This document shows, piece after piece, positions 117 through 27,565 of a stretch of 64,000 nt of DNA. Each line of letters starts with the position of its first letter. Position 1 is the first letter of the stretch. Source of the DNA: Adineta ricciae (Eukaryota; Rotifera; Eurotatoria; Adinetida; Adinetidae); assembly GCA_905250025.1 (NCBI GenBank), contig CAJNOJ010000069.1, forward strand, positions 68,458 to 132,457. Direction: 5' to 3'. The translations under genes were made by a program, and so were the position numbers. The notes beneath the pieces are model-generated. The model did no database searches and had not been told where the DNA came from. It saw nothing but the letters and a program-made list of their open reading frames with translations.

Positions 117-2350
117 CTATGAACCAAATACATCGAAGAGATCAGTAAATGCCTGGGTGCCAGGTTGTGGTGGAGCTTGACGGGTCGGTTCCCATGGCAT
201 TGCAGATTGCGGTCGATTGACTGCTGGCGCTGCCATGTGACTAAAATCACTTCCACCGAACATATTTGCACCAGGAGTTTTCGAACGGTTGGCCATAGAT
301 TTTTTCATCAGTTCATGCGCCATATTAAAGTCCACCGGTCGGAATGGATCCGATTCGTCTAATTTTTGATTACCACCACCAGTTGATGCTGCCGAAGCCG
401 AAAAGAATGGATCATCAGCTCGACTAACTCCAAACGGATCGGCTGTCGTTGGAAATGCGTTGAATGTATTATTCACATTGGCGGGCAAGCCGAACGGATC
501 AGCAGACGTGCTCGTCGGTGACGTGACTTGTGATTGTTGTTTTGGAGTAACAACTTTATTAGCTGTAAGTGGTGGAACTGCTGTTTTAACTGGACTATCA
601 GCCAGCTAAGGAAAACAATGAATAATCACTGATGAATGTCGAACAAAATGTGGTCATACCTGTTTGAATTTTAAGGTTAATTCATTGATTGCTGAGAGTG
701 AATCTTTTTGTTCACTCTTCATATATTGTTCAATGAGTGCACGTTGACCTTCGACAACATTCTGATATCGTTCGAGATCAAGTTTAACTTGATTGAATTG
801 CTGTTGTTTGTTCAAAAGTCGACTTTCAATGGTATTTTTTTCGTCACGGATTCTATTTAATGTTTGACGAACTTCTTGCTGAGCATCGGTTTCAACGGAC
901 AGTTCATTGATCTTTTCTCGTGCTAGCTCAATTAAGCGATTTTCCTCTTTGATTCGCTGTTCGATATCATGAATATCTTTGATTGCCTTTTCCTTACGGT
1001 TTTGTATATCGCTCAGTTCGCTCTGCTTTTCGGTCATACGTTGTTGACGCTCAACTAGCGTTGCATTCACTGTTCCACATCGAAGCTCAAGTGATGCGAG
1101 CTCAGCGCGTTTATCTTTGACAGCTTGTTGTTTTTCATTGAATTGGATTTCGCATAAACTTTTCTCGCTGGTTAATGCATTGACTTCGCTCAATAATTGT
1201 TGCAATTCAGCATTGTCACTGTCATTAACTGAGAATGTCTTCGGTCGAAGCGATGGTGGAATCATATCATGCGAAAGTTCCATAGGAATTTGGTAGTTCG
1301 GTGCTGAAAATATCAAGAAAAAGAAGTTATATTCGTATAGGAAAGAAACGAACCTTGCAATTTCAGTTGAATGAAGTGCGATGCTAATGCAAATTGTTCA
1401 GGATTGAGTTTACCCGTTTGACCAATATCGCATAGATTCCATATATGCGATAGTACAAAATTGGGTAGGCCACTTGTCAGAAATGTTTGAAAAACATCAT
1501 TGCCTGACAAGAATCCGTCTTTATCTGAGTCGAGTTGATGAAATAGCACATCGAATTTTTGCTTGTCTTCGAAACTAACAATCCATTGATCGTCCGTTCG
1601 TTTCGATGGTGAGATTTGCGAAGGTGCCAACGATGCTAATGCGCCTCCTGCTGGCATGATATTCGGTAGACTAATATTGATGTCAACACCTGATACTCGA
1701 CGCATGCGTATTGGCATTAGATTTGTTGGTAATCGGTCGGGTAATTCGCGGATAGTTGCAGTTTTTACACCATGAATAAGAAACATTGCAATTGCGAATT
1801 CATTTCGATCTAATGCGCCATCTTCATCAATGTCACTCAAGTCCCAGATCTTATGCAATTGATCAGCTGATAGACCAGACTTGAGAAATATGGGCTTGAC
1901 AGATGTACCTGGTAATTTACTCATTGTTCCACTTAATTTCTCGAATGCAACATCAAATGTACAACGAGCTGTAGGTCCAATTGTCCACATATCCGCAACG
2001 GCAAGACTTATGCTTTGTGGAATATCGCCACCTAAATTCGGCGGGACAATATCTTTCGTTATATTCGAGTAATCATTGAAATCGAGCTTATTTTGTGCGA
2101 GAGCAATAAGTTTCAATCCAATATAAAATCCTCGTCGATCTAAATAACCTCGACCGTGTGGATCAGCTAAGTTCCAAATGATTTTCAATTGTTCAGGTTT
2201 TAAATGTGAACGTTGAAAGTAATTATTCGCTTCGATGGAACTCACGATACCATGATCGTGAGGGTCGGATTGCGCGAAATGATATTCATACAAAGCATAT
2301 TGCGATTTACCGACTACGGTATCTAAATCGATCGTGTCAAATTCAGACAT
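117..2350 (-). CDS. EPS15: Eps15-like endocytic adaptor (three EH domains, coiled coil, DPF tail)
   Basis: Three exons (2350-1354, 1303-660, 605-117) give a 709-residue protein. Exon 1 encodes three EH domains, roughly residues 10-105, 115-215 and 250-340; the second and third keep EF-hand-like calcium loops (DIDEDGALD, DSDKDGFLS). Exon 2 is a long charged coiled coil (about 350-560), used for dimerisation in the family. Exon 3 has repeated DPF motifs (SDPFRP, DDPFF, ADPFG), the AP-2 alpha-ear ligand. The order EH3, coiled coil, DPF is diagnostic of Eps15/Eps15L1, a scaffold at clathrin-coated pits that binds NPF proteins. No ubiquitin-interacting motif is obvious at the C-terminus, and the protein is shorter than human Eps15. 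The ATG follows directly after a T-rich tract and CAG, so this start is strongly favoured. It is the last gene of the minus-strand cluster, 165 bases after the Kintoun stop. Confidence 0.93.
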
Positions 2351-2363
2351 CTGAAAAAAAAAG
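2351..2363 (-). promoter_or_regulatory. Splice-acceptor-like tract abutting the Eps15 ATG
   Basis: On the minus strand a run of T ends in CAG immediately before the ATG at 2350. No matching 5' splice site with a coding exon lies upstream, because the neighbouring gene Kintoun ends at 2516. This fits a trans-splice acceptor, though a 5' UTR intron cannot be excluded. Confidence 0.6.
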
Positions 2364-2515
2364 AAACAACATAAAAGTGAATGTTTTTTTTTTCTTTTTT
2401 TCTTTTAAACACCACCAGAGAAACGTCAGTGTAGAAGGAAATGTAATAGTATATACAGAGACAGAAAGAAAAACACTAGATAACCATGCACATCACGAAA
2501 GAAAATTTAACGAAA

Positions 2516-5245
2516 CTAATTGTCTAATTCGAAAATAAGAGGGTTAGTAAATTGAACAGCTGATTTAGTTTTTGAGGCATTTCCATCTTCACTCTTCGAC
2601 GACGCGATGCCGCTGGCTTGCCGAGCGATAACATCCTGGAATTCCACGGGATTTTTGTATTCATTCGATTGATTGGCTGACTTGTTTTTCTCCGATGTTG
2701 AATCATCTGGATCGCTCGATTGAGAGTTGAGAGAGTCTTGCCGTTTACGCTTTTTCAATTTACGTTGTTGATGCGACGATAATTTTCTCATACCTGAAAC
2801 AGGTCCACCTGGTTTAAATGTTTTTCTTGATACTTGATTGTTGAATGTCACATGTTTGACATTCAGCGACGAACTTGGTGTTGTGCATAAACTACTACTA
2901 CCACCGCTATCTGGCGATGTTACAATACTATTATTTTCATTACTACTAGTCAAATCATCAACAGTTGAACATGCTTCGAAAACAGGTTCTTCATGTTGAT
3001 TATCATTGTTCGAATTATCAAAGTTTTCACTGAATGATGCTGAGTACGAACGATATTTTGTTGAATTTTTTAGTATGCCCTAGAAAAGCGAAGGAAACTT
3101 AGTGGAAATGACTGAAAAGATATACTTTTAGTTTGAATTCTCCGTTTGATGTTAATCCCAGCTCAACTTGAGATTCCGACATATGGCGACGATAGGCTGT
3201 TGGACGCGCAATACTTTTAGGCATCTCAGGAAGTTTATCTTCCTCTTTTTCTTCATCGGTATTTGATTCAAGTGATATAGTCGAAATTTTATTCGATAAT
3301 TTATCGTTACTATCTGGTGCGGTTAACGAATTCTTTCGTTTTTGCTTGGCCATCTTTTTCGCTTGTTTCTTTGTTAGTTGTTTCGGCTGCTCGCCGTTCA
3401 ACGAAGTGGACGAGTCCGATCTGGACACGAGAAAGTCGTCCTTGGTCATTGCTTGAGTAGATGAAGTGCTGGCTTTGTCAGGAGCGGGCGTATTCGATAC
3501 AGTTGAATAATGCGTCTAAAACATGAAAAAAAATTTATCGATAATGAAGAGAAATACCGTGTACAGCTGGTAATGTTAGACATGATTCAATATTTGCATG
3601 CATGACTTATGAGGGGTGTTTATTTACCTTCATATCGTCGCGATTAACACTACTTTGAAAGTGATCGATTTGTTTATTGTTGGAAGTCTTTTTCAAAATA
3701 ACTAAAACATTGTCGTCATTGAATTTTATACTTGAAGAACTTTCGGCGGTGTCGAAAGTCATTGGTTCATCAAAATCAAGACAAAGTTGATGTTGAAGTG
3801 GATAAAACCCAGAGCCTAACGAGGATAACTGAATAGTAACATGTTGACCATCATTGTCTAGTTTGAAACTAGATTCATCGACATTTTTCACATAAATGAC
3901 AATTGCTAGATGTCCGGAACCTTGTTTGTATTCAAATGGAATTGATGTATAAACTACATTCGCAGGTTTCTCAATTGCTGGTGCGGGTTCTGTTGCTGGA
4001 ATGGGTGAGTTGACCTCAGCAGTCTCTTCATTCGTCTCTTCTGGAGGAGTATCTGTTTGCATTTCAATGACCGCCGGCATTTCTTTGATAACAGCTAATA
4101 CAACGAGTAACTTGCGTTGTTTTTTGTCAAAACGTGCATGACTATCACTCTCACGAACTGGATAAGATAATGGCAAATCAAGTGAATACTTTGGTGAGTC
4201 ACAGTGAAGTTTAAGTGAACGTTCACATACATCAAGATCGACATTACTCGATGATGCGCACAATGGCAGGTCAATTTCCACGAGTAACTCTTTCGGACGC
4301 ATTGAATGCACTTGTGAAACGAGAGGATTTGTACAATCCTGCATGTCGAACTCACCGCGATGAACTATACGATATGTTGGAACCGTAAAACCATTTTCAT
4401 CGGTACGAGGTGTGTTCGTCTCAGGCGGAGTGATACTGGCTGGCGGAGAAGAATTGTTATTAGTTGAACGGTTATGATTCGAAAGGATAACTTTATGGTT
4501 TTGAGCAGCAGATAGTGCCTTGTCGATGATTTCATCGCTAGAAAAGGTTATTAATCGATGCAATGAGATAGTAATTAGTTGCAAACACTTACGTTTCATT
4601 TTTTAATTGTTTTTCTGTTTCTTCCACAAAATTCTCTTGCTTTTTCCTAAGAATTGTTGCTTTTGGCACCCCTTTGAACTTCATTTTCAACCGTTTCACG
4701 TTTTTTCGATCCAATTTGCAATTGTAATTCTTTTCAACTGAGTCCAATGCTGATTCGTCGATCATATTCATGAATTTCTCGTTTGTTTCGCCCATTCGAT
4801 AAGTATCCGGAGAGAAAATCACATCGTAAACAGTACACGATTTCGATTCATGATCAAGATCTTCGTGTGGACCAGCTAGACAATGCGGTAAACTCCATTG
4901 TGCACCTTTTTTTCCATTCGGTCCATCGGTTTTCGCATAGGAAGGTTTATCTACATGTTCATTCATTGCAATGTTAATAAAACATTTCGTCTTATCACCG
5001 ATTGTTGTTTTCAGTACATGACCTGCGTTCGGATGTATGAATGTCACATCCGAGCCACGTTGTTGCTCGGCGGCGCGAATTTCTTGCTCGTATAGCTCGC
5101 GATTCTTTGGATCATTGAGTTCTTCTGCGTATTGAATAAACAATTTGCGAAATTCTGCGTTTTGAAATGCGTCCGAAAAGCGTTTCATTTCATCGCCAGT
5201 TAAATTTAAATCTTTTAATTTATCTTGAAAAGTACTTGCAGTCAT
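2516..5245 (-). CDS. DNAAF2: Kintoun/DNAAF2, PIH1-domain dynein arm assembly factor
   Basis: Four exons (5245-4593, 4537-3628, 3515-3126, 3079-2516) join in frame to 838 residues. The N-terminal PIH1 domain includes DVTFIHPNAGHVLKT and the PHCLAGPHEDLDH stretch typical of Kintoun. The middle holds the PIH C-terminal/CS-like part (TVPTYRIVHRGEFDMQDCTN, LLVEIDLPLC, LDLPLSYPV). A second CS-like segment lies near IPFEYKQGSGHLAIVIYVKN. The C-terminus is lysine- and serine-rich and contains GILKNSTKYRSYSASFSE, resembling the conserved motif near the end of animal Kintoun. In animals the protein works in the cytoplasm with HSP90/HSP70 to preassemble axonemal dynein arms, which fits a ciliated rotifer. 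The ATG lies 35 bases after the METTL9 stop and has a TTTCAG acceptor 9 bases upstream. The C-terminal exons are assigned by frame and motif. Confidence 0.9.
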
Positions 5246-5254
5246 AATTGTTAT

Positions 5255-5273
5255 CTGAAACAATGAAAATGAA
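5255..5273 (-). promoter_or_regulatory. Intercistronic acceptor between METTL9 and Kintoun
   Basis: The minus strand reads a T-rich stretch ending TTTCAG, then ATAACAATT and the Kintoun ATG. It sits about 24 bases after the METTL9 stop at 5281. So little space leaves no room for a separate promoter and supports polycistronic transcription resolved by trans-splicing. Confidence 0.65.
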
Positions 5274-5280
5274 CAACTTA

Positions 5281-6247
5281 TCATATTGCTAAGACAAAGA
5301 CATAATCATATAGGAAATAATAACTCCGTTCCATATCACCTTCACATAAATATGGTAGACGCGTTAATTTTTCTAGATGAAAACCTGATGGTTGAATGAC
5401 GTTCAGCACAAAACTGTTAATTTGCTCCTCAGGTAGTTCACCTTCGATCTGTAATGATTCATTCGGTCGGTGATGACTGTTATACTCAAAATAGGGTTTG
5501 AACGGAAGAACAAGACTAAGAACTACACGACCGATCTGAGGATTTAGATGATCGCGAATCTGCCTGAGTAATTGTACAGGATTTTCGCAACGATCAAGGA
5601 CATTTAAACAAGTAATAACATCAAATATATGATCTCCCCAATGGTTCGTATCGAGCACTGTGTAACCATACGTTGATAAACGCCAACGCATAGTTGGAGA
5701 TAGTTCAGTAACGTAGACTTTGTTAAAATTATTCGCCATGCGCTCCGTTATTGACCCGTCGCCCGCACCGATGTCGAGTAAGGTGCTGAATGGTGATTTT
5801 CCATCTGATTCGATATCGAGTAAAGTTTTAAACTGTGCACTTGAGTAAACAAACATTCGACCACGCCCGAGTAGACCATTTGCTAAAAATAAACATCACA
5901 GACTTTTATCAGTTCGACGAAAAACGAAACTTACCTGATGTTCGTGTCATAAACAATGTTAACAAAGACGCAAATACAGTATGAATCATTTGTAAGAACA
6001 CATTTTCAGATTTCTCTTCGCTTTGTTTGAGAAACAATTGGGTATCTTCGTCTTCATTCAATTGACAGAAACGTTCGCGATATTCGTCATGCAATAGATC
6101 ACTTCGGGATAAACGATACCATCTCGTTCGATCGATGCTTTGTAAACATCGATCGTTTTCTATCTTAATCAACGCAGCCCTTGCCCATGACGAACGCACC
6201 AAGGGATATGATGATTGGTGACAATTGGTACAGTATTCATTCATCAT
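5281..6247 (-). CDS. METTL9: METTL9/DREV-like protein-histidine methyltransferase
   Basis: Two exons (6247-5935 and 5882-5281) encode 304 residues. The junction rebuilds TSANGLLGRGRMFV, matching the TSINGLLGRG region of animal METTL9. The SAM-binding motif is LLDIGAGDGSITE; later conserved blocks are CLNVLDRCENP, RVVLSLVLPF and TRLPYLCEGDM. Family members methylate histidine in HxH-type motifs of target proteins, which is established for mammalian METTL9. The mammalian N-terminal signal sequence is not seen; the start used here has tandem ATGs and a TTTTAG acceptor 4 bases upstream. The gene sits between retinol dehydrogenase (98 bases upstream) and Kintoun (35 bases downstream), all on the minus strand. 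Confidence 0.9.
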
Positions 6248-9128: not shown

Positions 9129-10996
9129 CTACAAACAAGAAAATAAATCAGACCTCACCCGTCTCCGATGTCCTAAATGAAAAATCAAAGCATTTAGATC
9201 AGTCGGTAACATACTGGCCAATTAACTTAATGCTTGAAATCGTTCTACGTAAAGCAATCACGCGTTATTTCGTTTTCTGATTTGTGGTTTATCTAACTAC
9301 GTCATTGAGATAATTACGTCAAGGTCGGAGGCAAGTTTGTACTCGAATCCGAACTATATTTGCTTTTCAATGTTTAAAATTGTTTGATCAATGATCAATT
9401 CTGTGTTCGAGAAACAATTCATGAGTCACTATATGCAGATGATCGAACGAGCAACCAGTTAGTTGCTTAGATGTACCACACGAATGAGAACAGAAGAACG
9501 CATGACTGGCACACAGCGACCTCTTAGCATGTGTAGACAGTAACATATGAACGAGCATGGAATGTTCTATCCTGGGATTAGTTTCGAAGAAAAACATCGG
9601 TTCCAGGATTTCATGAGTATGCAGACATGTTGCTCGGCAAAATTTCTGTGTAAAGATCTCTGGGAACAATTCTTAGGTTCATTGATACATAGATCATAAA
9701 ATATCGATTAATGTTGTTGATTTATTTAAGATTTCTTTCATGGCTGAAAAATAATCAGTTGTTCATGCTCCTTTGAGAGATAACGGAATGAAAGGCGAGA
9801 TGTGATTTTGTTTTTCAAACAAAAACGTACATCAACAAGGGATTGGATTAATCAATATAACGAAGTTTCGTCGAGAAAATTTCTTTCGATTGACTATCCT
9901 TAACTTGACAGGAATGTCAAAATATCCGTCGACGTCTATTTAGTTTTTTGTGTAAATAAATAAAGAACTAAAAGAATAGCCAATATACTATTAAGAAGGA
10001 TAACGTTGAGAATATCGAAATGAGATTTGTTTTCCTTACGCTGTTATTAGGAGAGATATATATGTCAACGCGAAGTCTTAATGAAAATTCTGTTTGTTAC
10101 ATTAGAAGAGCCAGAGGAATTATTCTATTTGTCTTTCTTTTCTTGTCTGCAAGTAGTGCCAGCGACTGCTGTTGTAAATAGCTAATTAACGCCGAATTAC
10201 TATTAACAAATCTGTAACGAGATGAGAAATGTATTCGATGAATTGACGAGTGGATGTTTGCTTGTCGGATATCGCGACAAGAAACGGTATAGGTACGAGA
10301 GTGTTCTCTTTGCTGCTTGCATTCGCTGAGGGAAATTAACAATTCGTGAGTTTCTCGATTCATTCGATAGTTGAAGCAGTGAAAGCTGATCATAAGAGAG
10401 AGAGAAAATAAACATCATTCAGTTATCGTTTATTTACATCAAATGAGACAAATATAATAAACAAATAGTTTCGTCCGAGATGCAATCTGCTCGAGTTGAC
10501 GTACAAGATTCGATTATGATAAGGTCATGTGTAAATTTGAAGAGAGAGAGAGGGAGAGATGATCTACATTTTTGCATATAAATCGAAAACGTGATCACGG
10601 GAACCAACACGTAAGTTTTGTAGAACTTAGAAATCGATCTATTTGTTCGCTTAATGCATTTTGAAAACTCACGGCGAGGAAGAAATGATATCGATTTCTG
10701 TTCTAGATACATACAAGTCGTTTATTATGTAGATGAAATATTTTTCTTTGTATACAATAACAAAAGGTGTTTCTCTCGATTCTCATGATAATATCAGCAT
10801 AGAAATAAAATATTCTGTATCTTTTCTTCTTTCATAGGATAGTGATTCGATACTAAATGGCGTTGAGTGGAAATACAAACCTTATATGTAAGTTATACTC
10901 GTCAATTCTGATGAGTTTTTTTCTTCTTCTTCTTCATGATAAATCTCAAGGATGAATTCTTTTCCTCTTTTCACATCCAACTAATTCTGTATCACA
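9129..10996. other. Intergenic region between divergent genes
   Basis: About 1.9 kb between the start of TSEN2 (minus) and the cysteine-less channel gene (plus). I see no convincing gene: open frames are short and lack recognisable motifs. A short purine run (GAGAGAGAGAGGGAGAG) lies at about 10540-10557. The region should carry promoters for both flanking transcripts, including the whole five-gene minus-strand cluster, but no core element can be named. Confidence 0.5.
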
Positions 10997-12768
10997 ATGA
11001 ACCTAAAATCGGCTAAAGAGTCCGAACGAGAAGGCTTTTCTTATTTGATTCTAGTGGGAGCTGCGCATTATCATAACTCTCAGCCTCATTCAACGCTTCG
11101 TCATCAAACTTCCATACCTGAAGCACCTAATCTTCACGCAATCAATCGTCTAGCTGTGTCCGATCAGTCATTCGATGATACACTTTCTCTAACGTCTCCA
11201 TGTACATCATCGTCGTATCCATATCTCGATCAGTTCGCCTTACGCAATGCTTCAGTTTTTGCGATTTCAACATCGGATTACAAAGATCAAAAGCTGTTCA
11301 CTAGTCTGAGTCGACTGAATATGATTTCTTCCAATCCAAATGTACGCTCATCCAAAATTCAGACACCCGACGATGCCAACAATAAGTCATCAGATGAAAA
11401 TACCAGATCCACATACGTCTCCAATATGACAACAATGATTCCAACGGATATTACACAAAAACATCTTCCAATCGAAATTCGTGTTCGCTGTATTTTTCTA
11501 CGTGTGGGTGAAATCGATACACTCAATGAGCGATTCACCAGTGAGATCTTCTTCGAAGCCTCGTGGTATACGCGAGATCACAAACATGGGTCTAAATCTG
11601 ACTCTCATCCAGGTCATTTCAATCCACAATTAGTTGTCCTCAATCATATGGGAGATTCCTTGAGACACGAAGTGAGTTGAGTTCTGTGTTCTTCAAAGAT
11701 GTAGAAATGATATTGAAAACTAGAAATGGTATTCAACTAATGCGATAGCAGAAAACGGTCTGTTCGAAGTGACTGAACATCACAAATTCAAAGGTGTTTT
11801 CTGGGAGCGAATGGAATTAAATCATTTTCCATACGACGTCCAAGAATTGTCAATATCGTTAACAACACCGTTGAACGTAAATGAGATCTACTTTGTCGAG
11901 AATAAACAAAAACCTTCCGGTGTGAATCGAACTGTATTCAGTGATCAACAATCGTGGCATTTGTACGAACATGTCGAATTCCAATTCGAACAATACCGGG
12001 AAGAATATTCCTTGAATTACGATCAAATACATCCAGTTCTCGTTTGCACCTGCCATGTTGGAAGAAAATGTGGTTATTATATTTGGTAAAGCGAACGATT
12101 GTTTTTTGAGCTGAATCTTTCTCGAACGTTTCGTCTAGGAATGCATATTTTCTCATATTTCTTATTACGTCCGCGGCCCTCTCAACATTCGCTATTCCGC
12201 CATCAAACTCACATGGACGCTTACAGATTACATGTACTCTTCTTCTCACATCTGTTACTTTTCGCTGGGTTGTCAACAAATCTCTGCCGTAAGTTTCGCA
12301 AAGTCACTGTCGAATTTCTTAATCAACTGTTTTTCTCTCTCAACCAGAACAATATCCTATCTCACAGCGTTAGACGGTAAGGAAAAGCAATTGCTTTACT
12401 CTTTCAAGACCTTTTCTCCTTCTTTAGTTTACGCAATCGCGTCAATCGTTGCTTTGTGTATAATCAATGTATTTCATGGTGTTGTTAGTTATATCTATTA
12501 TAATCAAATTTATATAGCCTCTTATTTAACACCCACTGCAACCAATGCACTTCATCTGTCACTTTATCCGGAATACTCTCTTTGTCGTTTAGATCGAATT
12601 GGTTTTTACGTCTTGTCAGGTGCATTCTGTCTATATCAAATTTTAATCTTATTATGGACTTTTTGGAAACCATATAAACGGCGTCGAGCAATGAAACGAA
12701 AAGATGAGAAGAATCGAGAAGATTTTTTGAATAAACTCGGTAATGGCGAATCATCCAGTGGCAAATGA
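10997..12768 (+). CDS. Divergent pentameric ligand-gated channel-like protein without Cys-loop cysteines
   Basis: Five exons (10997-11671, 11724-12085, 12139-12288, 12348-12376, 12428-12768) encode 518 residues. The first about 150 residues are Ser/Thr-rich with no clear signal peptide. Then comes a ligand-binding-domain-like beta region (EIRVRCIFLRVGEID, KGVFWERMELNHFPYDVQEL). Four hydrophobic segments follow: YYIWNAYFLIFLITSAAL, the TM2-like QITCTLLLTSVTFRW, YAIASIVALCIINVFHGVV and RIGFYVLSGAFCLYQILILL. The segment HFPYDVQELSISL aligns with the Cys-loop FPxDxQ motif, but both flanking cysteines are absent. The TM2-TM3 linker PTISYLTALD resembles that of the superfamily. Ligand and ion selectivity cannot be told. 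A further upstream exon is possible, since a short ATG frame starts near 10857. The gene faces the glycine-receptor-like gene tail to tail. Confidence 0.75.
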
Positions 12769-13377
12769 CGGCAACCAGCGGAACGCTTCATTCGACTTTT
12801 CTTTTGCCAATGTCAAGACAACTCCAAATAGCACACCACTTGTACTTGTATATCAATAAATATCTCTACCGATCTGAGGGACATGTTGACACCTTGTCAC
12901 AGGGGAAAGCAATGACTTGATTAGATTAAGAGCATTCACAACTCATTCTTGTTTTGCGAAAAAATGATCGTCAAAATCAATTATATTTTCATTCATTCAA
13001 GAATAATTTTTAAAAAAAAGAGAGACAGAAGAACTTTCAATAGATACATAAGAATAGCTGTGAAGATATTTAATAATACATCGATCATGTATCACATTCA
13101 AGAAAAAGAGAGACAATATACTGTTCGATGATGATCATTACATTGAAGAAGAAGAAAAAACGAAGAGGGAAAACGAAACAACATCATTGTATGGTATTCG
13201 TTGATAGATTTGAACAAGAAAAAAAAAGACAACTGCACTGTTTCTTTTCCTTATTAATTGTGTGCCACTGCCAATTATTTTAAAATATATTCAACATGCA
13301 TATTGAGATAAACCATCCTAGAATATGAGAAGGCAAATTGACTTGACAGATGAATTGATTTCGAAAGCACACGAATC
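12769..13377. other. Convergent 3' region between two channel genes
   Basis: About 0.6 kb between the two tail-to-tail channel genes. It contains AATAAA on the plus strand near 12855 (ATCAATAAATATC), a likely polyadenylation signal for the plus-strand gene. It also has A-rich tracts and no supported coding sequence. Confidence 0.5.
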
Positions 13378-16300
13378 TTACCAGTAGATAATATTAAATA
13401 CAATGAAGGCAACAGGAAACAGGACTGCTGAAACAAGATCGACCTTAATTAAAGAAGTAAGTGAAAGGATGAAAACATGATTTTTCACTCACAAATTGTG
13501 CACTGTCACGAACAGGTTTAGCAGCTTTCGCTAACTGTGCTGGCTGTGACAAGACAACCTGTGGTGTTTGTGAAGGTGCGCTAGTATTTGACATCGTAGA
13601 ATAATGAGAGTGTGAAGTAGTGGTGGTAGTTCCACCACCTAGATTTCTGTCGGCACCACTTGTTTTATGAACAAGCGTTTCCATCGTTTCAGCGTTACTT
13701 TGATGTGCATCGTCTTTCTTGTAGAAATGCACTTGAGCAAGACGATTGCCAATAACCTTGAAGACGAATATGAGTAAAAAATAAAAATTCGAAAAGGACA
13801 ACAATTAGAATGAGCTAATATAGATGTAGAATGATAATATTGTGAAAATAATATATATGTACGTATATATATGTATAAATGAATGTGTACGTGTATATGT
13901 GAGAAAATTATAAGAAGAAGCTTTAGGAAAAATATTCTAGTGACCACTACGTAAGAAAAAAAATTCAATTGATTTACTCTCTCAGCAGCAAAAGATGAGC
14001 CATTCTGTAGTTTTTGTATCAGAGTGACTTTTGGTGGTCTGTCTGGATTTTTCCTCTATAACATATTGTCGAAATGTTTGTATCATACATATAGGCTAGA
14101 TGTTCAAAGCAATGGAATGGCAAGATGAAGAACTTACTTCTTTGGAGAATCGAACTTGTTGTTTAAGTTCGCCTTTTCGAGCAATAACATTAACAAGTGC
14201 GTATTCAAGCAGGCCGGCAAAAACGAAAACAAGACATGCTGACATCCAGACATCGATGGCTTTTATATATGACACACGTGGCAATTGTGACCGAATACCT
14301 AAACATGAGAAAAAACTTTGGTTACATCGAGTTCGTCGTTCGGCTTTCGACACGGGGCGATGAGGGTCAAAGTCATAAGCAAGGTCTGTAGGCAGCAAGG
14401 TGTGTTCATATTCGGAGAGGAAATAAAACATGTCTTTCTGCCTGAGACCCATAAAAATAAGCAATCAAGCATTATAGCTGTGTATTTGATAAACAGAAGA
14501 AGAAAGGAAGCGGTGAGCACGGTGTGAACAGGTGTAAAATCAATAGAAATGATTTGTTTTCATGACGAGTATTTGAATTTTGCTTTTGTTTTTTTTTATA
14601 AGTTTTTCGTTACCTGAGCTTTGAGTAGTAACTGTAAGTACAGTTAAAAGACCGACTGAAATTCTCGCTGGAACCTGAATATAGTGAGTAGAAATAAAAG
14701 TGTGCTAGTCGACTTGGATTGTGCGACCTTACCGACTTATGATCGATCCAGAATGAAACAAAAGAAAGAATCACAATAAGCATTGATGGAATATAAACTT
14801 GAACTATAGAAATGTACCTTGCTCGAATGCATACTCGCACAAAACAAAGTTCACTAAACTCACCAAGATAATAACCAAATAAACGTTTCAAATGAAGAAC
14901 AACGAGAAGGCATGTGAAACTGCCTAGAACATATCGATCGTTTAAGTAAATAAACGAGTATGATATTTGAAAAAACTTTCTTCATTTGTGTATACTTTGC
15001 TACTAACTCAGTCTAGACGATGATTGAGGTGCACGGGAAGTAGTTGTGTGGTGAATCTCTCGAAAGGAAAAGTACAAACAAACGGACAAAGAGTGCAAGC
15101 AGAAAATGCGCGCGCGTGTGTGTTGATGAGCTTGGACTACTCAAGATAAAGGTTCAAGGAAGAAAGAGAGAGAGAGAGATAGTTAAAAAACAATAAGAAA
15201 GAGAAGTTTTTTTTTGTACCTTCAGCCTTTGTTGTTACAGTAACAATGCTGAGTAGACTCAATAATGTTCGTGCAGGATGAGATTTATAGTCGATCCAGA
15301 ATGCGATAAATGATAGAGCAACAATTAACGTTGATGGCAAGTAAAGCTGTTGTAAATATAAGTTGATGTTGCGTTGAAGAGCGAGGTGTACTTCGATACA
15401 AGCGAATTTTCCTACGAGTCAGTCGAGGAGAAAAGCAAACTTATTACATAAGAAAAGACATATCATGAAAAGTAACTCAAATGAAGAAAGTTTTTTTTTC
15501 CTTTTGCCTTTGTAAATCAAATTGACAAACAAAGAAATAGAAGCAAACCTGTTGCTGTCGTTCGATTACAGTATCTTGCTTCATGGTTACTCAAAACAAA
15601 ATCGGGCATTTCAAGATCTTCATTAACTCGAATAGCACTGACATTTGGAGCTTCTTCCCAGAAAAAAGCCAAGTCATTTGTAGCAAAGCCATCTAGAGAT
15701 AAACAAATTATTTGTCAAGTGCTATTAACATTCGCTTTTTAGTACGTACAACTGCCTATGTTAACTACACATGTCTGGTTATCAAGTGGGAATTTTTGTA
15801 ATTTCATTTGACAATCAAGTTTAAGTAGAAGTCTACGAGAACGAATCAAGAAGCAATCGATTGATAATTGAAACATGAAAAGACTACCAACCTTTGACTA
15901 TAGAGGACTTTGCCATCGCGATGAATACGAATCAGCCGATTGGGCACCGTTATGTCACTTCGTTTACCTTCTTTGGCATTCCGAAAGAATGAATCCGGTA
16001 CCCAAATACGATCAATCAGCGAATAATGCAAAGTGATTATTGGTGATTTGATCGCCCAATCCGTTCCAGTATAATTCAACCTTGGATCATACCACGACTG
16101 GCGAAAAATGAGATCTGTATTATAATCCTGCAAGTTAATCGTAAAGAAATTTCGCTGACATTGTTATGCTAACCTTACCATATTAACTTCATTAATCGCT
16201 GATATGGTGTTAATATGAATCGTCATTGTTACATTACATGCTTCTATAAAGAATAAGGCAAAGTAATGAATGCAGAGATCGTTTGTAAGAAAAGATTTAC

Positions 16301-16469
16301 TTCGTTGACTGAAGAACGGTCGAATACGTCGATCGTACCGACTTGAATTGATCAGTGTGTCGAGAAATTCTTCGACTGTATTAATAGTTGCATCATGCCG
16401 TAAATAATTTGTACTAGAAACAAGCGTAAAAAGAGTCATTAAGCACTGTAAATCCAAATAGGAATGCAT
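13378..16469 (-). CDS. Glycine/GABA-A-type Cys-loop chloride channel with two alternative TM1-TM2 exon sets
   Basis: Exons read on the minus strand: 16469-16301, 16243-16179, 16127-15892, 15832-15750, 15692-15549, then either set A or set B, then 14298-14138, 14055-13978, 13756-13493, 13443-13378. Each choice yields 485 residues. A signal peptide begins MHSYLDLQ. The ligand-binding domain ends in a canonical Cys-loop, DC then 13 residues then C, with FPLDNQT. TM3 is [20 protein letters not shown] and TM4 is [16 protein letters not shown]; the last exon ends with the stop right after YW, as in many anion channels. The set-B PAR motif before TM2 and TVTTQSSG match glycine receptors, so anion selectivity is inferred. 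The TM3-TM4 loop is Thr/Ser-rich. Ligand could be glycine, GABA or glutamate; the sequence alone does not decide. Confidence 0.88.
14614..14923 (-). other. Alternative exon set B (three exons) encoding pre-TM1, TM1 and TM2
   Basis: Exons 14923-14864 (60 nt), 14803-14733 (71 nt) and 14674-14614 (61 nt) sum to 192 nt. They encode [33 protein letters not shown] and [19 protein letters not shown]. They enter in phase 1 and leave in phase 1, the same phases as set A. This version is the closer match to vertebrate glycine receptor. Confidence 0.8.
15220..15411 (-). other. Alternative exon A (single exon) encoding pre-TM1, TM1 and TM2
   Basis: One 192-nt exon encodes [20 protein letters not shown], then [19 protein letters not shown], a short charged linker and [19 protein letters not shown]. 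It is flanked by acceptor CGTAG and donor GGTACA. It begins and ends in phase 1, exactly like set B, and has exactly the same coding length, so the two can replace each other but joining both would add a second TM1-TM2. Confidence 0.8.
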
Positions 16470-17987
16470 GTCTAGTTGGCGATAAACGCGAGACGGTGGC
16501 TGATGGATTGACTTTAAATAATGATGCGTAGCATCAACCAACAGAAAATGAATAATGTAAATAACTGGCAAATACGAAGAATCTTAACCAAAAATGCAAG
16601 AAGAACAGCAACATCGTCTTGTCTCATACATAGATGATGTCCGATGTTCTTGATACGTGAATATTAATACCGATGACATTTTCAACGAAGGGAATATAAA
16701 TAAATAGTTGACAAACGTATGGTTGTGAAATTTAATCTATTTTTCTAGATGTTTTTTTGATGGAAAGAAACAGAAGTTTTCGACGCCGTTTATCAGAGAC
16801 ATTGATACGTAATCTCGAAGAGAGACGACATCATCGAACAAGCTGGAGCCAACAGTAATAGTGGGCACAAACAACTGACAAATGATGAAATAAAAGAGAG
16901 AGAGAGAAGAAAAGCGGAAGAGGGAACAGTCGGCGAAGAAACGACGTCTTCTATTTGTCGTCGGACGAGAACGCTAATAGTAGAAGATCTGTCTAGGGTC
17001 CTTTGCTTTGATGAAATATTAAAAAAAGAGTAATTGAACAACAAATTAACTCTCGATTTGACATGTAAAGCAATGCTCTCCTAGTGCCTTTGAATAAAGC
17101 AAATTTTTATTCTACTCAATCAATCTATCTTACACATTACGTTTCCGATTCAACTCAAGGTCAATGAACAGGCAGCAGCATCAGTAGCGCTTCACATACT
17201 CTCATACACTTCCTATTGAAACAAGTTCTTTTTAATCGAATATGGGCTAGAATCATATTAATTAAATACAGACACGGCAGGAAAAGAAAAGAAAAGAAAA
17301 GAAAAGAAAAGAAAAGAAAAGAATGCTTTATGGAAAATTGAACAGGAATTTTTCAAATATAATGCGCTCAGTCAGCAGGAAGTTGCTTACATGAAACTTT
17401 CTCTGCTGATACGAACTAATCGATCCACTGATGAGAAGCAAAGGAGCAATCAATCTCATTACCACCCGCATTTTTGTCGATCTTTCAATAGATTTCTTTA
17501 TTATTTATGAAGTATGTTCATGCAAACAACTAATATTAACTCTCTTCCTATTTGTATATACGGGCAATTCGTATTCATTCTGCTTGTTGTTTATTAGTTC
17601 CACTTATCAATGCAGTATTACCATTTTGGTATCTAGAGAGATAGACAATGAAGCTTTATAATCGTATCTTCGCCGAAAAAGCATTTAAGTGTCATACTAT
17701 CTCTTCTCTATATTAGCTTAGAAAAAAAACATTATAAAGTCGAAAGACAATGACAGAAAAGTCCCTCCGGCAAGGTGTTTTTTTTCGATGTAGATCAATT
17801 TACTCTCGACTGACGAGGGACGACAACAAAGCGTCTATACATGTACGATCTGAGGAGGGGAAAACGCCTATCAGACATGTGTTGACAAATTTGAAAGCGG
17901 TTAATTAGGAAGTTTTCCACTGGTGTAACTATGATATACACTCGGAAAGCACACAAACAAGATTCTATGCCTTAAAACGATTTTCTC
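16470..17987. other. Intergenic region with a pentanucleotide repeat
   Basis: About 1.5 kb upstream of the glycine-receptor-like gene. No gene is supported; apparent frames lack known motifs. It includes the GAAAA repeat listed separately and probably the promoter of the channel gene on its left side. Confidence 0.45.
17281..17322. repeat. (GAAAA)8 microsatellite
   Basis: Eight perfect copies of GAAAA plus GA. A shorter complementary tract of TTTTC units occurs at 35769-35794. Confidence 0.95.
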
Positions 17988-18206
17988 TTACGCACTCGAA
18001 ACTTCCGCTTGCCGCCCTATTCTCGGGAGCTTGTTATTTACAAAATTTGAACTGGAAAAATTCAAAGGTAGAAGGCAAATTAGTGAGACCCACCTTTCCA
18101 CCGGCTCTTCGTGGGTTTTGCTCGCCCACATCTCTTGAGATGCGACTGGTTGATATAATAGACAAGTGTTCAAGACAAGTAAAATCAAAATGTTGAGAAG
18201 AATCAT
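17988..18206 (-). CDS. Candidate secreted peptide precursor with an amidation-type KLPRIGR site
   Basis: A small frame with a strong signal peptide (MILLNILILLVLNTCLLY, cleavage likely after PVAS). It is 72 residues if read straight through, or 58 if a 42-nt intron with GTGGGT and TTTTTCCAG ends (18093-18052) is removed; both keep the same frame. The C-terminal part reads SNFVNNKLPRIGR then QAEVSSA. Gly-Arg after PRI is a standard amidation and cleavage signal, so a peptide ending LPRI-amide is possible, reminiscent of the PRX-amide neuropeptides. Only one copy of the peptide is present, and the protein has no wider family I can name. Real coding status is uncertain. Confidence 0.45.
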   Translation of the reverse strand: MILLNILILLVLNTCLLYQPVASQEMWASKTHEEPVERWVSLICLLPLNFSSSNFVNNKLPRIGRQAEVSSA

Positions 18207-20235: not shown

Positions 20236-20442
20236 CTACCGATCAGATGATTGAGACCGACTCGGATCGATCATTTTTCTCCAAAGTTGGTGATTTGGAT
20301 GACCGTCTTCTAGATCAGGTGTGTCCGTTAAGGTCGCTCCTACCGTCGTTGTTGTCGCCTTAGGAGCAGCATATGAACAAAAAACGAAGAATTGATTGTG
20401 AATCCAGAGTGTTAATGTAAGAAGCAATTGCATGAAACGCAT
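20236..20442 (-). CDS. Candidate small secreted protein, unknown
   Basis: A 68-residue frame starts with MRFMQLLLTLTLWIHNQ and a hydrophobic run ending FCSYAAP, a plausible signal peptide. It continues with a Thr-rich stretch, DLEDGHPNHQLWRKM and a Ser/Arg-rich end. The stop codon overlaps a GGTAGGT donor-like sequence, so this could also be the first exon of a longer gene whose next exon I could not place. No family is recognised. Confidence 0.3.
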   Translation of the reverse strand: MRFMQLLLTLTLWIHNQFFVFCSYAAPKATTTTVGATLTDTPDLEDGHPNHQLWRKMIDPSRSQSSDR

Positions 20443-22623: not shown

Positions 22624-25133
22624 TTAGTTTTGATGTTGTGGCTCGGAGGAGTCAGTAGAGGTGGCAGTTGCATCATTATGTGTCGGTGCATGAACAGTTT
22701 GTTTTTTGATTTGCATTCGGTAGACATACGTATCCTCAGTGGATTCGACTTGACCGGAATTTAGATCGAATGATCGACCTTTTGTTGCTAATGGCGAGGC
22801 AGATGGTGCAGGACTCCACCATGACATAAGATCTAAGTAAGAACATAAGTCAGATGTGAGGATTCTAATCGATGAAACCTTACTTGATACTAATGGCAAT
22901 TGTCGTAGAAGACCATCCTGAGCAAGTAGTTGCAGGTTTTCATCCTCAAGATCTTTTTGAGCTTTGACAATACCCTCTTTGATTTTTTCGGCCATATCTT
23001 CGATGTATTTCAAGGAGGTTTCAATTTCATTTCCAGCATGGGCGATTTTCTGTAACAGAATTTCCAGATCTTCACGTTTGCGGATCATACCTAAACGCAA
23101 ATAGAGCATTGAGTCCAATTCATCTGAGCCGCCGCCTAGAGAAAATGCCGAATCATTGCTTTGTAATTGCCGTGCTAGTTCCGATTGAATACGATTGATT
23201 TCATACATTGATGTTTCATTCATATCAGCCCGGTTGATCGTACTTGGAATATATCGAACGGCGCCAATACCTGCCCAATTTGGTATGGGAATGGCGACCA
23301 GGTTTTCATGTTTTGCAATCGATGCTAATAGATTGACACGTGCTGTGATGGTCGCGAGAAGAATATCAGTGAAGCGTTGAAGATCGTCGAGAAATGCTCG
23401 CATGTCATCCTGATCAATATTATCAATAAGATGTTCCAGTGGTGCGAAGCGAAGTACATGGGCGGGAAGTTGATCCTTTGATTTGACACTTTGAAAATGA
23501 ATACTTTTGAGTAATTCTAAATTCATCTTCGGATATTGCTGAGAGAGTTTATCGAATAGCCAGAGAGTTAAAAGGTCAAGGTAACCAATGAAATCATCAT
23601 TATTTTCACACTAAAAACATATAACAGAGATAATATTGTGCTCATTGTTTTCTCTTTCAAATCGCTAAATAGGAAACAACACTGGCTCGTGAAAATCAAT
23701 TCTAATTGAGTAACTCTATTGTCATTCATATCACTTCAACATCGTTTCGGAATGGAAAGAATAGAACAAAAATGAGTGCCTAATTTAACAGAAACGTACA
23801 CAAGGTTATTGCCATTCCGAAACGACATTGGACTGTTATTTCCTCAAATCAGTGGCAAGGTCTTACTTCACCGAATAAACCATCGGGTTGAAAACGAAAA
23901 ACAACGACCGATCGCGGTAAATCACTATCAGGCGCGCCGTCTGAGCAAACACGTGAATATGTGTTGTGTTCTCTTTCATGTTCATCATTCAGTATTCGTA
24001 TATGTTTCGTTTGTTTCAAACGCGTAAACAATAAGTCTGCCAGTTCGAATGATTGCTTCATATGATGGAGAAGATTTTCGTTTGAACAACGTTGACTAAT
24101 CGACCAAACGCTAAGAAAACTGATCGATGGACTATGGAGAATAAATTCATCGAGTGGATGAACTTTATTTGACGAATGATTGTCTTCAGCTTGTTTTTCA
24201 TTGTTCAATGGTCGAAGAAAACATGTTAAATAAGGGAGATTTTGTATACCTAACAATTTCATTATATCTATTGTTAAACTGTCACACATGATGCTAACGT
24301 TGTCGTTCAATGCTGGTAGCAATGCTAATGATCCTAGAAGATCGCCAATAACATGCACCCAAACGTCATATTGTTCGCACAGAGTTTTGATCTTCTTCAG
24401 ATCATCACATCGGCCTAAGAATGGTGATCCTAAAAGTAGAAGACAGCATAGTGATCAAATGTGTTTTCATGCGAATGAAATTTACCTGCATTGGCGATGA
24501 CCATGAAAGGATAAGATAAAGTATCATTAGCATCGCGCTTGATCAGTTCTTCTAATTGTTGAAGGTCGATCATATCATCATGTGAATTTCGGTTTTGGAC
24601 ATGTTCAAATTTGATATTCGATATCGACGATGTTAAATCGAATTTTAAATTCGGCTCGAAATCCGTTGCGATATAAATAACGGCTTTTTTATATTGATCA
24701 GTTTTCAATGCATAGCGAATGACGCGCTGGAATGCTTCGGAATAATACGTTGAACAAAGAATGGTCTGACTATGAATATGAAAGAGTTTTTCGCACCACT
24801 GAAGAATTTCGTTCTGATATTTTGGTAAAACCGATGTTTTGACATGATACGGAAGTGTATCGAAGAAAGCGGCTAACTGAAATAAGACGAAGTAAATGCA
24901 TGGAAAAGATTTGTTTATGTTTTGTTTCTAGTTACCACTGCGGCATCGCCAACACATTCTAAATATCGATTCCAAACAAGATGAACACATTGCCGAGCTT
25001 CGTCATCTTCATGGAGATAAGATAAACAATGGGACATAAAGTCAGTTTTCAGTCGATTGTTCAATTCAACGATTTGTTCTTCATTAGCAATTGGCAAAGT
25101 TTTGTTTTCCATCTCGGCTTGTTCGGATGTCAT
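22624..25133 (-). CDS. PDXDC1: PDXDC1-like PLP-dependent decarboxylase domain protein
   Basis: Five exons (25133-24936, 24876-24486, 24429-23867, 23610-22884, 22832-22624) give 695 residues. The decarboxylase-like region runs from LAAFFDTLPYHVKTS through SYPFMVIANAGSPFLGR and VWVHVIGDLLGSLAL to CDSLTIDIMKLLGI. The C-terminal half, beginning near MNLELLKSIHF, has the alpha-helical extension specific to PDXDC1 and ends in a low-complexity tail. Group II decarboxylases place a His-Lys Schiff-base pair near the CDSLTID segment; here only IMK is found, so catalytic activity is doubtful, as is also suspected for vertebrate PDXDC1. The function of the family is poorly known. The ATG directly follows TTTCAG. 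The ABCD4-like gene ends 332 bases upstream on the same strand. An additional small exon between 23867 and 23610 cannot be excluded. Confidence 0.85.
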
Positions 25134-25465
25134 CTGAAACGACGGCCTTGTATTACTTTTTGCTATTTGTTGAATGAGTGTACACATGCACACATTTAGT
25201 TGTTCTCTTTTCTCGTATTAGAGGTAGAGACAGAGAGAGAGAAAATGAGGACGTGGCAACTGAGAGAAGAGCAAAGGTGACAAACACGTGTGTCTCCATT
25301 GGAAGAAAAAAATACCTATCGTTCATACAGAGTAGACAGTCTTCTCCTACAATTTGTTATATATATGCACCAACCGTAAGAAAGAACGGATAAAAAACAA
25401 TAAGTAACCTATAGAAAAGTCTATTTTACTGTTGTTCTCCTGAGCTAGAGGTGAAAGAAAACAAT
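25134..25465 (-). other. Gap between ABCD4-like and PDXDC1-like genes
   Basis: 332 bases between the stop of the upstream minus-strand gene and the ATG of the next. The pyrimidine tract and TTTCAG lie at its PDXDC1 end. It may be an intercistronic region or a compact promoter. Confidence 0.4.
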
Positions 25466-27565
25466 TTAATTTATTGAGGAAAGGTTTTCGAGCAGATATC
25501 GGCCATTCTTAAATATTTTCAGTTCGATTTGGTGATATTGTCGAAGACTATCTCGGTGGCCAATACTGATGAGAGCCACGTTTTGTTCGATCAAATAATT
25601 GTACATTTTCGCTTCCATCTGTGCGTCAAGTGACGAAGTGATTTCATCAAGAAAAATAAGACTAAGGTTCGATGAAACGGCCGAAAGACGAAGAATCAAT
25701 CGTAAAAAAGATAGACGTTGTAGTTCACCGGGCGATAAGATATCTTGCCAAGGATATTTTGGACACACAAATACACTGCATTCTACACTATCGAGAATAT
25801 GAGAAAGATTCCACTCGTGAAGAAGTTGTTCAATTTCTGTCTGACGTGCGATCAGTGGGACGTTCTCCACATTCGGATACTCAAGTTCATCATGGATGGA
25901 TTGATTGGTAAAATAGGGACGTTGTGGAAGTAAAAAGGCACGAGATGAATTGTAAGAAAAATCACCATGGATGCTTACAGGCCATAAGGAATGGAGAACA
26001 CGGAAAAGGGAGGTTTTCCCAACTCCACTATCGCCTGAAACGAGACTTAAGTTTTTGAAATCAATTCTCTTCGAGGTTCATACCTGTGATGAGCAATCGT
26101 TGGCCTTGGTATAGAACTAAATTCAAATCCCTCAACAGAACATGTTTAGGTTTGTTCGGAATCGAATACGAAAGGTTTTTTATCGAAAGAATCTCATTCT
26201 GTTGACTAATTGGATTGACGAGTTTCTCTGCCCATGTGGTATCGATATTTTTCATAAACTCAACAAATGTTTGCACACGATGTGTATTCGCAGCGATGAC
26301 TGTGACGCGATCAGTTAAATCATTCAGTTGACTAAAACGGTATATCAAATACATAATCATAAACGAGGTTTTACTAATCTTTTCCACTAAGGCCGCCGGG
26401 GATAAATTATCGTAGAAATGAAAGACAAAGATCACTAATGCTAATAGAAGATAGCTTAAAATACTTCCGATATAATCGAATAGATTCGTGGATAGACTAA
26501 GGGAAAGTTCTTGAAAATTTCGACGGTAAAGAATTGGTGTAAGACTTTGTAGAAAATAATTATCGAATCGTTTATGTTCAAATGCTCCGCCATTGTAAAA
26601 TGCAATCGATTCATTATACGTTCGCACTTGAGTGTGAAGAAAACGGAAAGTACCTTCCAAGATATTTTGAGAGAAGATTGTTCGAGACACGGCTGATAAA
26701 AAGATTTTGTTGATCGGTGTCCAAATCACAAAGTAGAGCACGATGGCTAATGGACCATAGTAACCTGTTACTTCCCATGTGCGATATGTGTAGTAAACAA
26801 TAGTAAATGGAGAGATAAGAACGATTGGAAGAATAACAGATAGAGATCGGCATAGAGCGTCAACATCTTGAGCTATACGTTGATCGGGATTATCAATCAA
26901 TGGTTTCGTTGTGTATAATAGACGAGGAGTAGTCGGAGAAATACCATCAATAGACTCGTCATCATTGTCATCGATATCAGTACTGAAAAGAAAAGAAAAG
27001 AAATGAAATAGTTCGATTGTAGATTTCATATGCAGTCTAGAAACATCTTTGCTTTCCATCGATGGAATTCTTACGTTTGTACTGTCTGATTTTCATAGAC
27101 GCTTGCTTGATCATGATTCGACCGATTGTGGTTCTGTTGTGTGGTATTCAGTAAATGATAATATCGTTGCTTAGTGAAATAAATGGAATGTAGATAAAGA
27201 ACAAGTCTCATTCGCCATTTGACATAGAGTACCGATGAGAAAAACGTTGACAAAGATTTGAGAACTGCATTTAGAATAACTAGACCGAATGATCGAATAA
27301 CTAACCAACGAAACAGAGAAAAGTTTCGTTGGTCAGGTGCTTTGCTCAATTCAACATAGAATTGAGATGGAAGTAAACCGACGAAATAGATCACAAACTG
27401 GAGACCGATCTCGTTGGCTAGTAGTAGAAAAATAAGTACCAATGGATGTGCATAGATACCTTCCTTGTGGGAATTTGTTGAAAGACGAGAGAGTGGTAAG
27501 AAAATATGAAGAAGATGAGCAATACGTTTTACAAATAGATAATTAAAACTATTCCTTCCACTCAT
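25466..27565 (-). CDS. ABCD4: ABC half-transporter, ABCD4 type
   Basis: Three exons (27565-27075, 26982-26084, 26034-25466) give 652 residues, near the usual ABCD length. The N-terminal membrane domain has several hydrophobic helices (PLVLIFLLLANEIGLQFVIY, IVLYFVIWTPINKIFLSAV, LSYLLLALVIFVFHF). The signature for ABCD includes DNPDQRIAQDVDALCRSLS. The C-terminal nucleotide-binding domain has Walker A TGDSGVGKTSL (completed across an intron), the signature LSPGELQR instead of LSGGE, Walker B LSLIFLDE with the catalytic Glu, and the switch His in SIGHRDS. Human ABCD4 sits in the lysosomal membrane and is needed to release cobalamin; that role is inferred here by family. A very-long-chain acyl-CoA transporter (ABCD1-3) is less likely because the conserved EAA-like motif differs. 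Confidence 0.85.

What the first reader, a model, noticed from the sequence alone, without database searches (positions are those of the whole stretch)
14614..15411. Two interchangeable pore exon sets in a glycine-receptor-like gene
Set A (one exon, 192 nt) and set B (three exons, 60+71+61 = 192 nt) both encode pre-TM1, TM1 and TM2, and both enter and leave in phase 1 between the same flanking exons. They differ at pore positions: in B TM2 reads [13 protein letters not shown], in [14 protein letters not shown]. That changes the 2' residue (Ser to Leu) and the 9' gate residue (Leu to Val). Splice choice would therefore set gating, conductance or drug block in one receptor. Mutually exclusive exons are known in insect ligand-binding and TM3 regions of such channels, but a swap of the whole TM1-TM2 unit is not one I know.
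Basis: partly seen in the sequence, partly recalled or inferred. Interest (0 to 1): 0.88.

Follow-up and report, generated by a model that had tools for sequence, protein, structure and literature searches.

The report
Two swappable channel-pore exon cassettes
An animal glycine-receptor-like gene carries two intact, interchangeable versions of its channel pore that differ at residues thought to control how fast such channels shut, so splicing probably gives one receptor two gating behaviours, though no transcript has been seen yet.

Summary
A minus-strand glycine-receptor-like gene (13275-16413 plus leader exons) holds two in-frame versions of the pre-TM1/TM1/TM2 unit: set A (15220-15411, one exon) and set B (14864-14923, 14733-14803, 14614-14674), 192 nt each. 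Both enter and leave in phase 1 between the same exons, and both give a stop-free receptor. They share 34 of 64 residues; 9 of 10 comparable fourfold codons differ; simulated neutral drift over that distance left no copy that was both open and as similar (0 of 4000 from either start). Each scores as Neur_chan_memb alone.

Set B is near-canonical. Set A differs at -3' (V to H), 2' (S to L), 4' (G to S) and 9' (L to V) but keeps the PAR anion motif. Positions -3' and 4' belong to a published desensitisation gate (PMC4410641 section 7); its TM3 half lies in shared exon C and is canonical. Best reading: a mutually exclusive pore cassette that tunes desensitisation and conductance.

TM2-changing exclusive exons are already reported in insect nicotinic subunits (passages), so this is a new variant of a known kind. 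No transcripts, relatives or species identity were available; exclusivity is inferred.

The parts
15220..15411 (-). Set A: single exon, 192 nt, pre-TM1, TM1, TM2 (TM2 [15 protein letters not shown])
   Evidence: Open, phase 1 in and out, AG/GT borders; 31.8 bits to Neur_chan_memb alone
14864..14923 (-). Set B exon 1, 60 nt, pre-TM1 and start of TM1
14733..14803 (-). Set B exon 2, 71 nt, TM1 and TM1-TM2 linker
14614..14674 (-). Set B exon 3, 61 nt, TM2 ([15 protein letters not shown])
   Evidence: joined set B 50.7 bits to Neur_chan_memb alone
15549..15692 (-). Shared upstream exon P (end of ligand-binding domain); weak donor gtttgc chooses between A and B1
14138..14298 (-). Shared downstream exon C (TM2-TM3 loop, TM3; TM3 half of the desensitisation gate)
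15750..15832 (-). Shared exon x4, with the Cys-loop
   Evidence: Neur_chan_LBD match
15892..16127 (-). Shared exon x3, ligand-binding domain
16179..16243 (-). Shared exon x2, ligand-binding domain
16301..16413 (-). Shared exon x1, start of ligand-binding domain
13978..14055 (-). Shared exon d1, intracellular loop
13493..13756 (-). Shared exon d2, intracellular loop
13382..13443 (-). Shared exon d3, TM4
   Evidence: TM4 aligned to glycine receptor alpha-3
13275..13317 (-). Shared last exon d4 with stop codon
18094..18206 (-). Candidate first coding exon (MILLNILILLV..., signal peptide judged by eye), joins x1 in phase 2
20240..20442 (-). Second candidate first coding exon (MRFMQLLLTLT..., signal peptide judged by eye), also joins x1 in phase 2

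Best explanation
This is a tandem-duplicated, mutually exclusive pore cassette in a glycine-receptor-like anion channel subunit. Splicing from exon P enters either A or B1-B2-B3 and leaves to exon C, so the same ligand-binding domain, TM3, intracellular loop and TM4 are joined to one of two TM1-TM2 units. Shown here: two intact, equal-length, phase-matched sets with usable splice sites, both retaining family features and not explained by neutral drift since they diverged. Inferred: that both are used, one at a time. Inferred and less sure: B (4' Gly, 2' Ser, 9' Leu) gives an ordinary chloride pore, while A (4' Ser, -3' His, 2' Leu, 9' Val) gives a channel, or a partner subunit in mixed pentamers, that desensitises faster and conducts less. 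This follows because A changes the TM2 side of the M2/M3 desensitisation gate while the TM3 side, in the shared exon, stays canonical. I put the gating detail at about 0.4 on its own; the confidence below is for two alternatively used pore cassettes.
For: Geometry, phase and open frames. Independent Pfam score of each set. TM1-TM3 with A or with B best matches glycine receptors; whole isoform B best matches glycine receptor alpha-3 at 1.3e-103. A and B: 34 of 64 residues identical, codon-position differences 29/16/42; dN 0.45, dS not computable, 9 of 10 identical-residue codons of the V/P/T/A/G families differ at the third base. Neutral drift from A or B at 0.78 changes per site: open in 2.2% or 3.3% of 4000 runs, open with 34 or more residues kept in 0 of 4000 each. 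Splice sites of A: acceptor rank 2 of 137 AGs, donor rank 16 of 174 GTs, within the spread of the other exons. PAR motif in both, 4' and 9' changed in A only. Desensitisation gate: Gielen et al. PMC4410641, section 7 read and passages; TM3 V, L, N partners conserved in exon C.
Against: No transcript evidence. No relative in which A could be seen to be conserved (searches found none; no genome held). The A branch is far longer than the B branch (1.14 against 0.15), which fits relaxed constraint as well as new function. A keeps 11 and B 13 of 17 columns invariant in six reference receptors. Recent decay of A is not excluded: at drift of 0.1 per site 32% of copies stay open. No reading-frame penalty for including both or neither. 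Pairing between the flanking introns did not stand out from shuffles (9, 6 and 29 of 100 shuffles as strong or stronger), so no exclusivity mechanism was found. Position -3' is variable among the six references (A, I or S; rows), and -3' is V in B but that is not invariant; B itself is unusual at 6' (Leu) and in pre-TM1 (CLL).
Confidence: 0.7

Rival explanations
1. Set A is a dead or dying duplicate: spliced rarely or not at all, still open because its decay is recent.
For: Long A branch (1.14 against 0.15) and loss in A of 4' Gly and 9' Leu, both invariant in the six references; at low drift (0.1 per site) 32% of simulated copies stay open.
Against: Exact 192-nt length, phase, good splice sites, PAR motif kept, Pfam score above the cut-off; long neutral drift excluded.
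Confidence: 0.16
2. A was not duplicated within this gene but copied in from a diverged paralogue (exon shuffling or conversion through a spliced copy, which would explain why A lacks B's two introns); it may still be an alternative exon.
For: A has none of B's two internal introns; A+B as sisters is only weakly supported, 77/84; large synonymous divergence.
Against: A and B are each other's neighbours in the tree, though weakly; both share W-to-F and A-to-S (-4') changes and 5' Leu, 6' Leu, 11' Val, which no reference in the set of six has (rows).
Confidence: 0.08
3. Both sets are included together, giving a subunit with six membrane helices (topology would be preserved).
For: P-A-B-C stays in frame without stops.
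Against: A second pre-TM1 strand and second pore helix in one subunit has no precedent that I know (recall); such a subunit is unlikely to assemble.
Confidence: 0.03
4. Assembly artefact joining a paralogue's exon into the gene.
For: No second genome or reads to check.
Against: No N in the window; A lies between ordinary introns with fitting splice sites.
Confidence: 0.03

Closest known systems
Insect nicotinic receptor alpha6, mutually exclusive exon 8 (8a/8b/8c)
   Same: Tandem exclusive exons in a Cys-loop subunit that change TM2 residues (passages of PMC2064938, PMC1919356, PMC6393475)
   Different: Cation channel; one exon against one exon; exon 8 holds only part of TM2, not the whole pre-TM1/TM1/TM2 unit
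Silkworm nicotinic alpha8, alternative exon 7
   Same: Alternative exons in the membrane domain, located at TM2 and TM3 (passages of PMC2045683)
   Different: Exons 86% identical and so recent; TM3 included, TM1 not; cation channel
Insect RDL exons 3 and 6, GluCl exon 3
   Same: Exclusive exons in anion-selective Cys-loop subunits (passages of PMC2064938)
   Different: They alter the ligand-binding domain, not the pore
Tropomyosin first-exon substitution
   Same: A homologous swap in which two exons are replaced by one (passage of PMC9741552)
   Different: Not a channel; two against one at the 5' end
Vertebrate glycine receptor alpha1-3
   Same: Best solved-structure matches over ligand-binding domain and TM1-TM4; PAR motif
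   Different: No alternative TM1-TM2 in these that I know of (recall); 6' is Thr there, Leu in both sets here

Membership tests
Cys-loop (pentameric ligand-gated) receptor subunit | Neur_chan_LBD and Neur_chan_memb domains | tested here: met
   Both isoforms, LBD 153.5 and 152.4 bits, memb 116.6 and 138.6 bits
Cys-loop (pentameric ligand-gated) receptor subunit | Two cysteines 13 residues apart | tested here: met
   [15 protein letters not shown] in the model, counted by me (sequence)
Cys-loop (pentameric ligand-gated) receptor subunit | Four membrane helices | tested here: met
   Pfam memb match covers profile 1-233 of 233; TM4 aligned; no dedicated helix predictor was run
Anion-selective subunit | PAR motif before TM2 | tested here: met
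   In A and in B
Glycine receptor | Closest relatives are glycine receptors | tested here: inconclusive
   Best solved-structure match is glycine receptor alpha-3, but invertebrate families without structures were not compared
Glycine receptor | Opened by glycine | not testable with these tools
   Needs expression
Mutually exclusive tandem exons | Adjacent homologous sets, same phase, same flanks, similar length | tested here: met
   34 of 64 residues, 192 nt each, phase 1
Mutually exclusive tandem exons | One and only one set in each transcript | not testable with these tools
   No transcripts; both-in and both-out stay in frame
Mutually exclusive tandem exons | Competing intron base pairing | tested here: inconclusive
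   Three intron pairs: 9, 6 and 29 of 100 shuffles reach the observed energy; steric exclusion unlikely since the A-B1 intron is 296 nt
Insect nicotinic alpha6 exon 8 system | Cation-type (GEK-type) nicotinic subunit | tested here: not met
   PAR before TM2; best matches are glycine receptors

The most novel reading that the evidence does not exclude
Alternative splicing exchanges the whole pore-forming half of an anion channel's membrane domain and, through 4' Gly/Ser, 2' Ser/Leu and -3' Val/His opposite an unchanged TM3, switches the receptor's desensitisation gate: a splice-controlled change of desensitisation and conductance with an unchanged ligand-binding domain.
Probability: 0.35. Interest if true: 0.78.

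Novelty: new variant of a known kind. Interest (0 to 1): 0.56.

Why it matters
If both sets are used, one gene makes two receptors with the same ligand-binding domain and different pores. That would be a natural chimera experiment separating binding from gating, and would show evolution changing the desensitisation gate that was located by mutagenesis in GABA-A and glycine receptors. It would extend exclusive exons in Cys-loop receptors from parts of the binding domain or of TM2 to a complete TM1-TM2 unit in an anion-type subunit.

Tried and rejected
Own genome search: none is held. Relatives: viral contigs gave 10 pattern stretches and no relative; genome contigs gave 67 stretches and one called relative, which on inspection is a bacterial signalling-type fragment matching 48 residues at 31% (judged by eye), so no comparative test was possible. 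Intron pairing as the exclusivity mechanism: no signal beyond shuffles. Steric exclusion: intron too long (296 nt). Frame-shift/decay control of wrong products: rejected, both-in and both-out are in frame. RNA families and tRNAs: none in the window. Opposite strand over 14501-15600: longest stop-free stretch 50 codons, nothing of note. Species: not determined; the compact eukaryotic gene layout suggested a rotifer to me, but that is a guess from no call.

Full report
What is there. On the minus strand the window holds a complete membrane-receptor gene. From exon x1 (16413) to the stop codon in exon d4 (13275) the exons join with AG/GT borders into an open model with set A or with set B, 479 aa each. 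Both models carry Neur_chan_LBD (153.5 and 152.4 bits) and Neur_chan_memb (116.6 with A, 138.6 with B; cut-offs 26 and 28.1). The closest solved structures to the B model are glycine receptors, alpha-3 first (E 1.3e-103). Two candidate first exons, at 18094-18206 and 20240-20442, both fit x1 in phase 2.

The two pore sets. Set A is one exon, 15220-15411. Set B is three exons, 14864-14923, 14733-14803 and 14614-14674. Each totals 192 nt and runs from phase 1 to phase 1 between exon P and exon C. Alone, A scores 31.8 bits and B 50.7 bits against Neur_chan_memb. With exon C, A matches glycine receptor alpha-2 at 9e-36 and B at 7e-44. A tblastn with relaxed settings showed no further set in the window. 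My first pass had B2 one base off, mended.

Is A alive? A and B share 34 of 64 residues, and differ at 29, 16 and 42 of 64 first, second and third codon positions. dN is 0.45; dS could not be computed; of 10 codons with the same residue in the V, P, T, A or G families, 9 differ at the third base. The third-position difference (42 of 64) corresponds by hand to about 1.56 changes per site between the copies, 0.78 each. Neutral drift of that size leaves 2.2% (from A) or 3.3% (from B) of 4000 copies open, and none open with 34 or more residues kept. So neither has drifted freely for most of its history. A recent release is not excluded: at 0.1 per site 32% (from A) stay open. Also against full health, the A branch is much longer than B's (1.14 against 0.15; tree of 8 rows, 65 columns, no strongly supported fork; A+B 77/84). 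If A came from a paralogue, the constraint could have acted there.

Splicing. Scored with a matrix made from this gene's own sites, the tested ones included, A's acceptor ranks 2 of 137 AGs and its donor 16 of 174 GTs; leave-one-out scores (6.2 and 2.9) lie inside the spread of the other exons (-0.8 to 8.2 and 0.2 to 8.4). The donor of P, which would have to choose, is the weakest by that score (0.2). P-A-B-C and P-C are also in frame, so exclusivity must come from the splicing machinery. I found no intron pairing beyond shuffles, and the A-B1 intron is 296 nt, too long for steric exclusion as I understand it.

What the swap changes. Against glycine receptor alpha-2, alpha-3, alpha-Z1 and beta, GluCl and GABA-A beta-3, 17 of 65 columns are invariant; A keeps 11 and B 13. 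A alone breaks 4' Gly (Ser), 9' Leu (Val) and a TM1 Ser; B alone breaks 3' Leu; both break three others. PAR is kept by both, so both should be anion pores. At 2', A has Leu, which none of the six has (A, G, P or T). At -3', A has His and B Val; this column varies among the six. In GABA-A receptors the 4' glycine, described as highly conserved in all GABA-A and glycine receptor subunits, the -3' residue and TM3 residues V296, L300 and N307 set the desensitisation rate: Gly to Ala 2.5-fold and Gly to Val 14-fold faster; -3' changes 7- to 14-fold faster (PMC4410641, section 7). Exon C, shared by both isoforms, has V, L and N at the three TM3 places (glycine receptor beta and GluCl do not have all three). 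The swap therefore alters one side of the gate only. The prediction that A desensitises faster and conducts less, or acts as a modifying partner in mixed pentamers, is inference; Gly to Ser was not among the changes in the section I read.

Comparison with the literature. Exclusive exons that alter TM2 are reported for insect nicotinic alpha6 exon 8 and silkworm alpha8 exon 7 (passages); insect RDL and GluCl exclusive exons lie in the ligand-binding part. A two-for-one homologous exon swap is reported for tropomyosin (passage). In seven completed searches no listed title or abstract start described a TM1-TM2 swap in an anion Cys-loop receptor; most subscription papers are not in that library, and I did not read the listed papers beyond those named. 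So the kind is known and the extent is new.

Verdict. Observation confirmed; interpretation plausible and partly supported; novelty a new variant of a known kind.

Noticed in passing
window 18094-18206 and 20240-20442 (-): Two candidate alternative first coding exons, each beginning with a hydrophobic leader (by eye) and each joining exon x1 in phase 2: possible alternative promoters for the same receptor.
   Followed up: partly
window 17391-17471 (-): A third ATG with a hydrophobic leader (MRVVMRLIAPLLLISG...) followed by a GT in phase 0, which does not fit exon x1 (sequence, phase by eye); the downstream limit is my estimate.
   Followed up: partly
window 14614-14674 and 15220-15411 (-): Both pore sets have Leu at TM2 6', where five of the six references have Thr and glycine receptor beta has Phe; picrotoxin resistance would be expected (recall).
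   Followed up: partly
window 10985-12765 (+): Convergent neighbour gene with a very weak ligand-binding-domain match (Neur_chan_LBD E 0.042, below cut-off; 5-HT3A receptor E 0.063): possibly a highly diverged pentameric channel.
   Followed up: partly
window 15549-15692 (-): The donor of exon P (gtttgc) is the weakest of the gene by leave-one-out score (0.2), as might suit regulated choice.
   Followed up: no
window 15206-15219 (-): A run of A's directly after the donor of exon A (gtacaaaaaaaa); with A's lack of introns it made me think of a reverse-transcribed copy, but it is not evidence by itself.
   Followed up: no
window 17281-17323: Perfect tandem array of GAAAA, 8.6 copies.
   Followed up: no
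window 1316-5895, 22627-27092 (-): Other genes by Pfam: EH-domain protein, PIH1-domain protein, DREV methyltransferase, PDXDC1-like protein, ABC transporter with membrane region 2.
   Followed up: no
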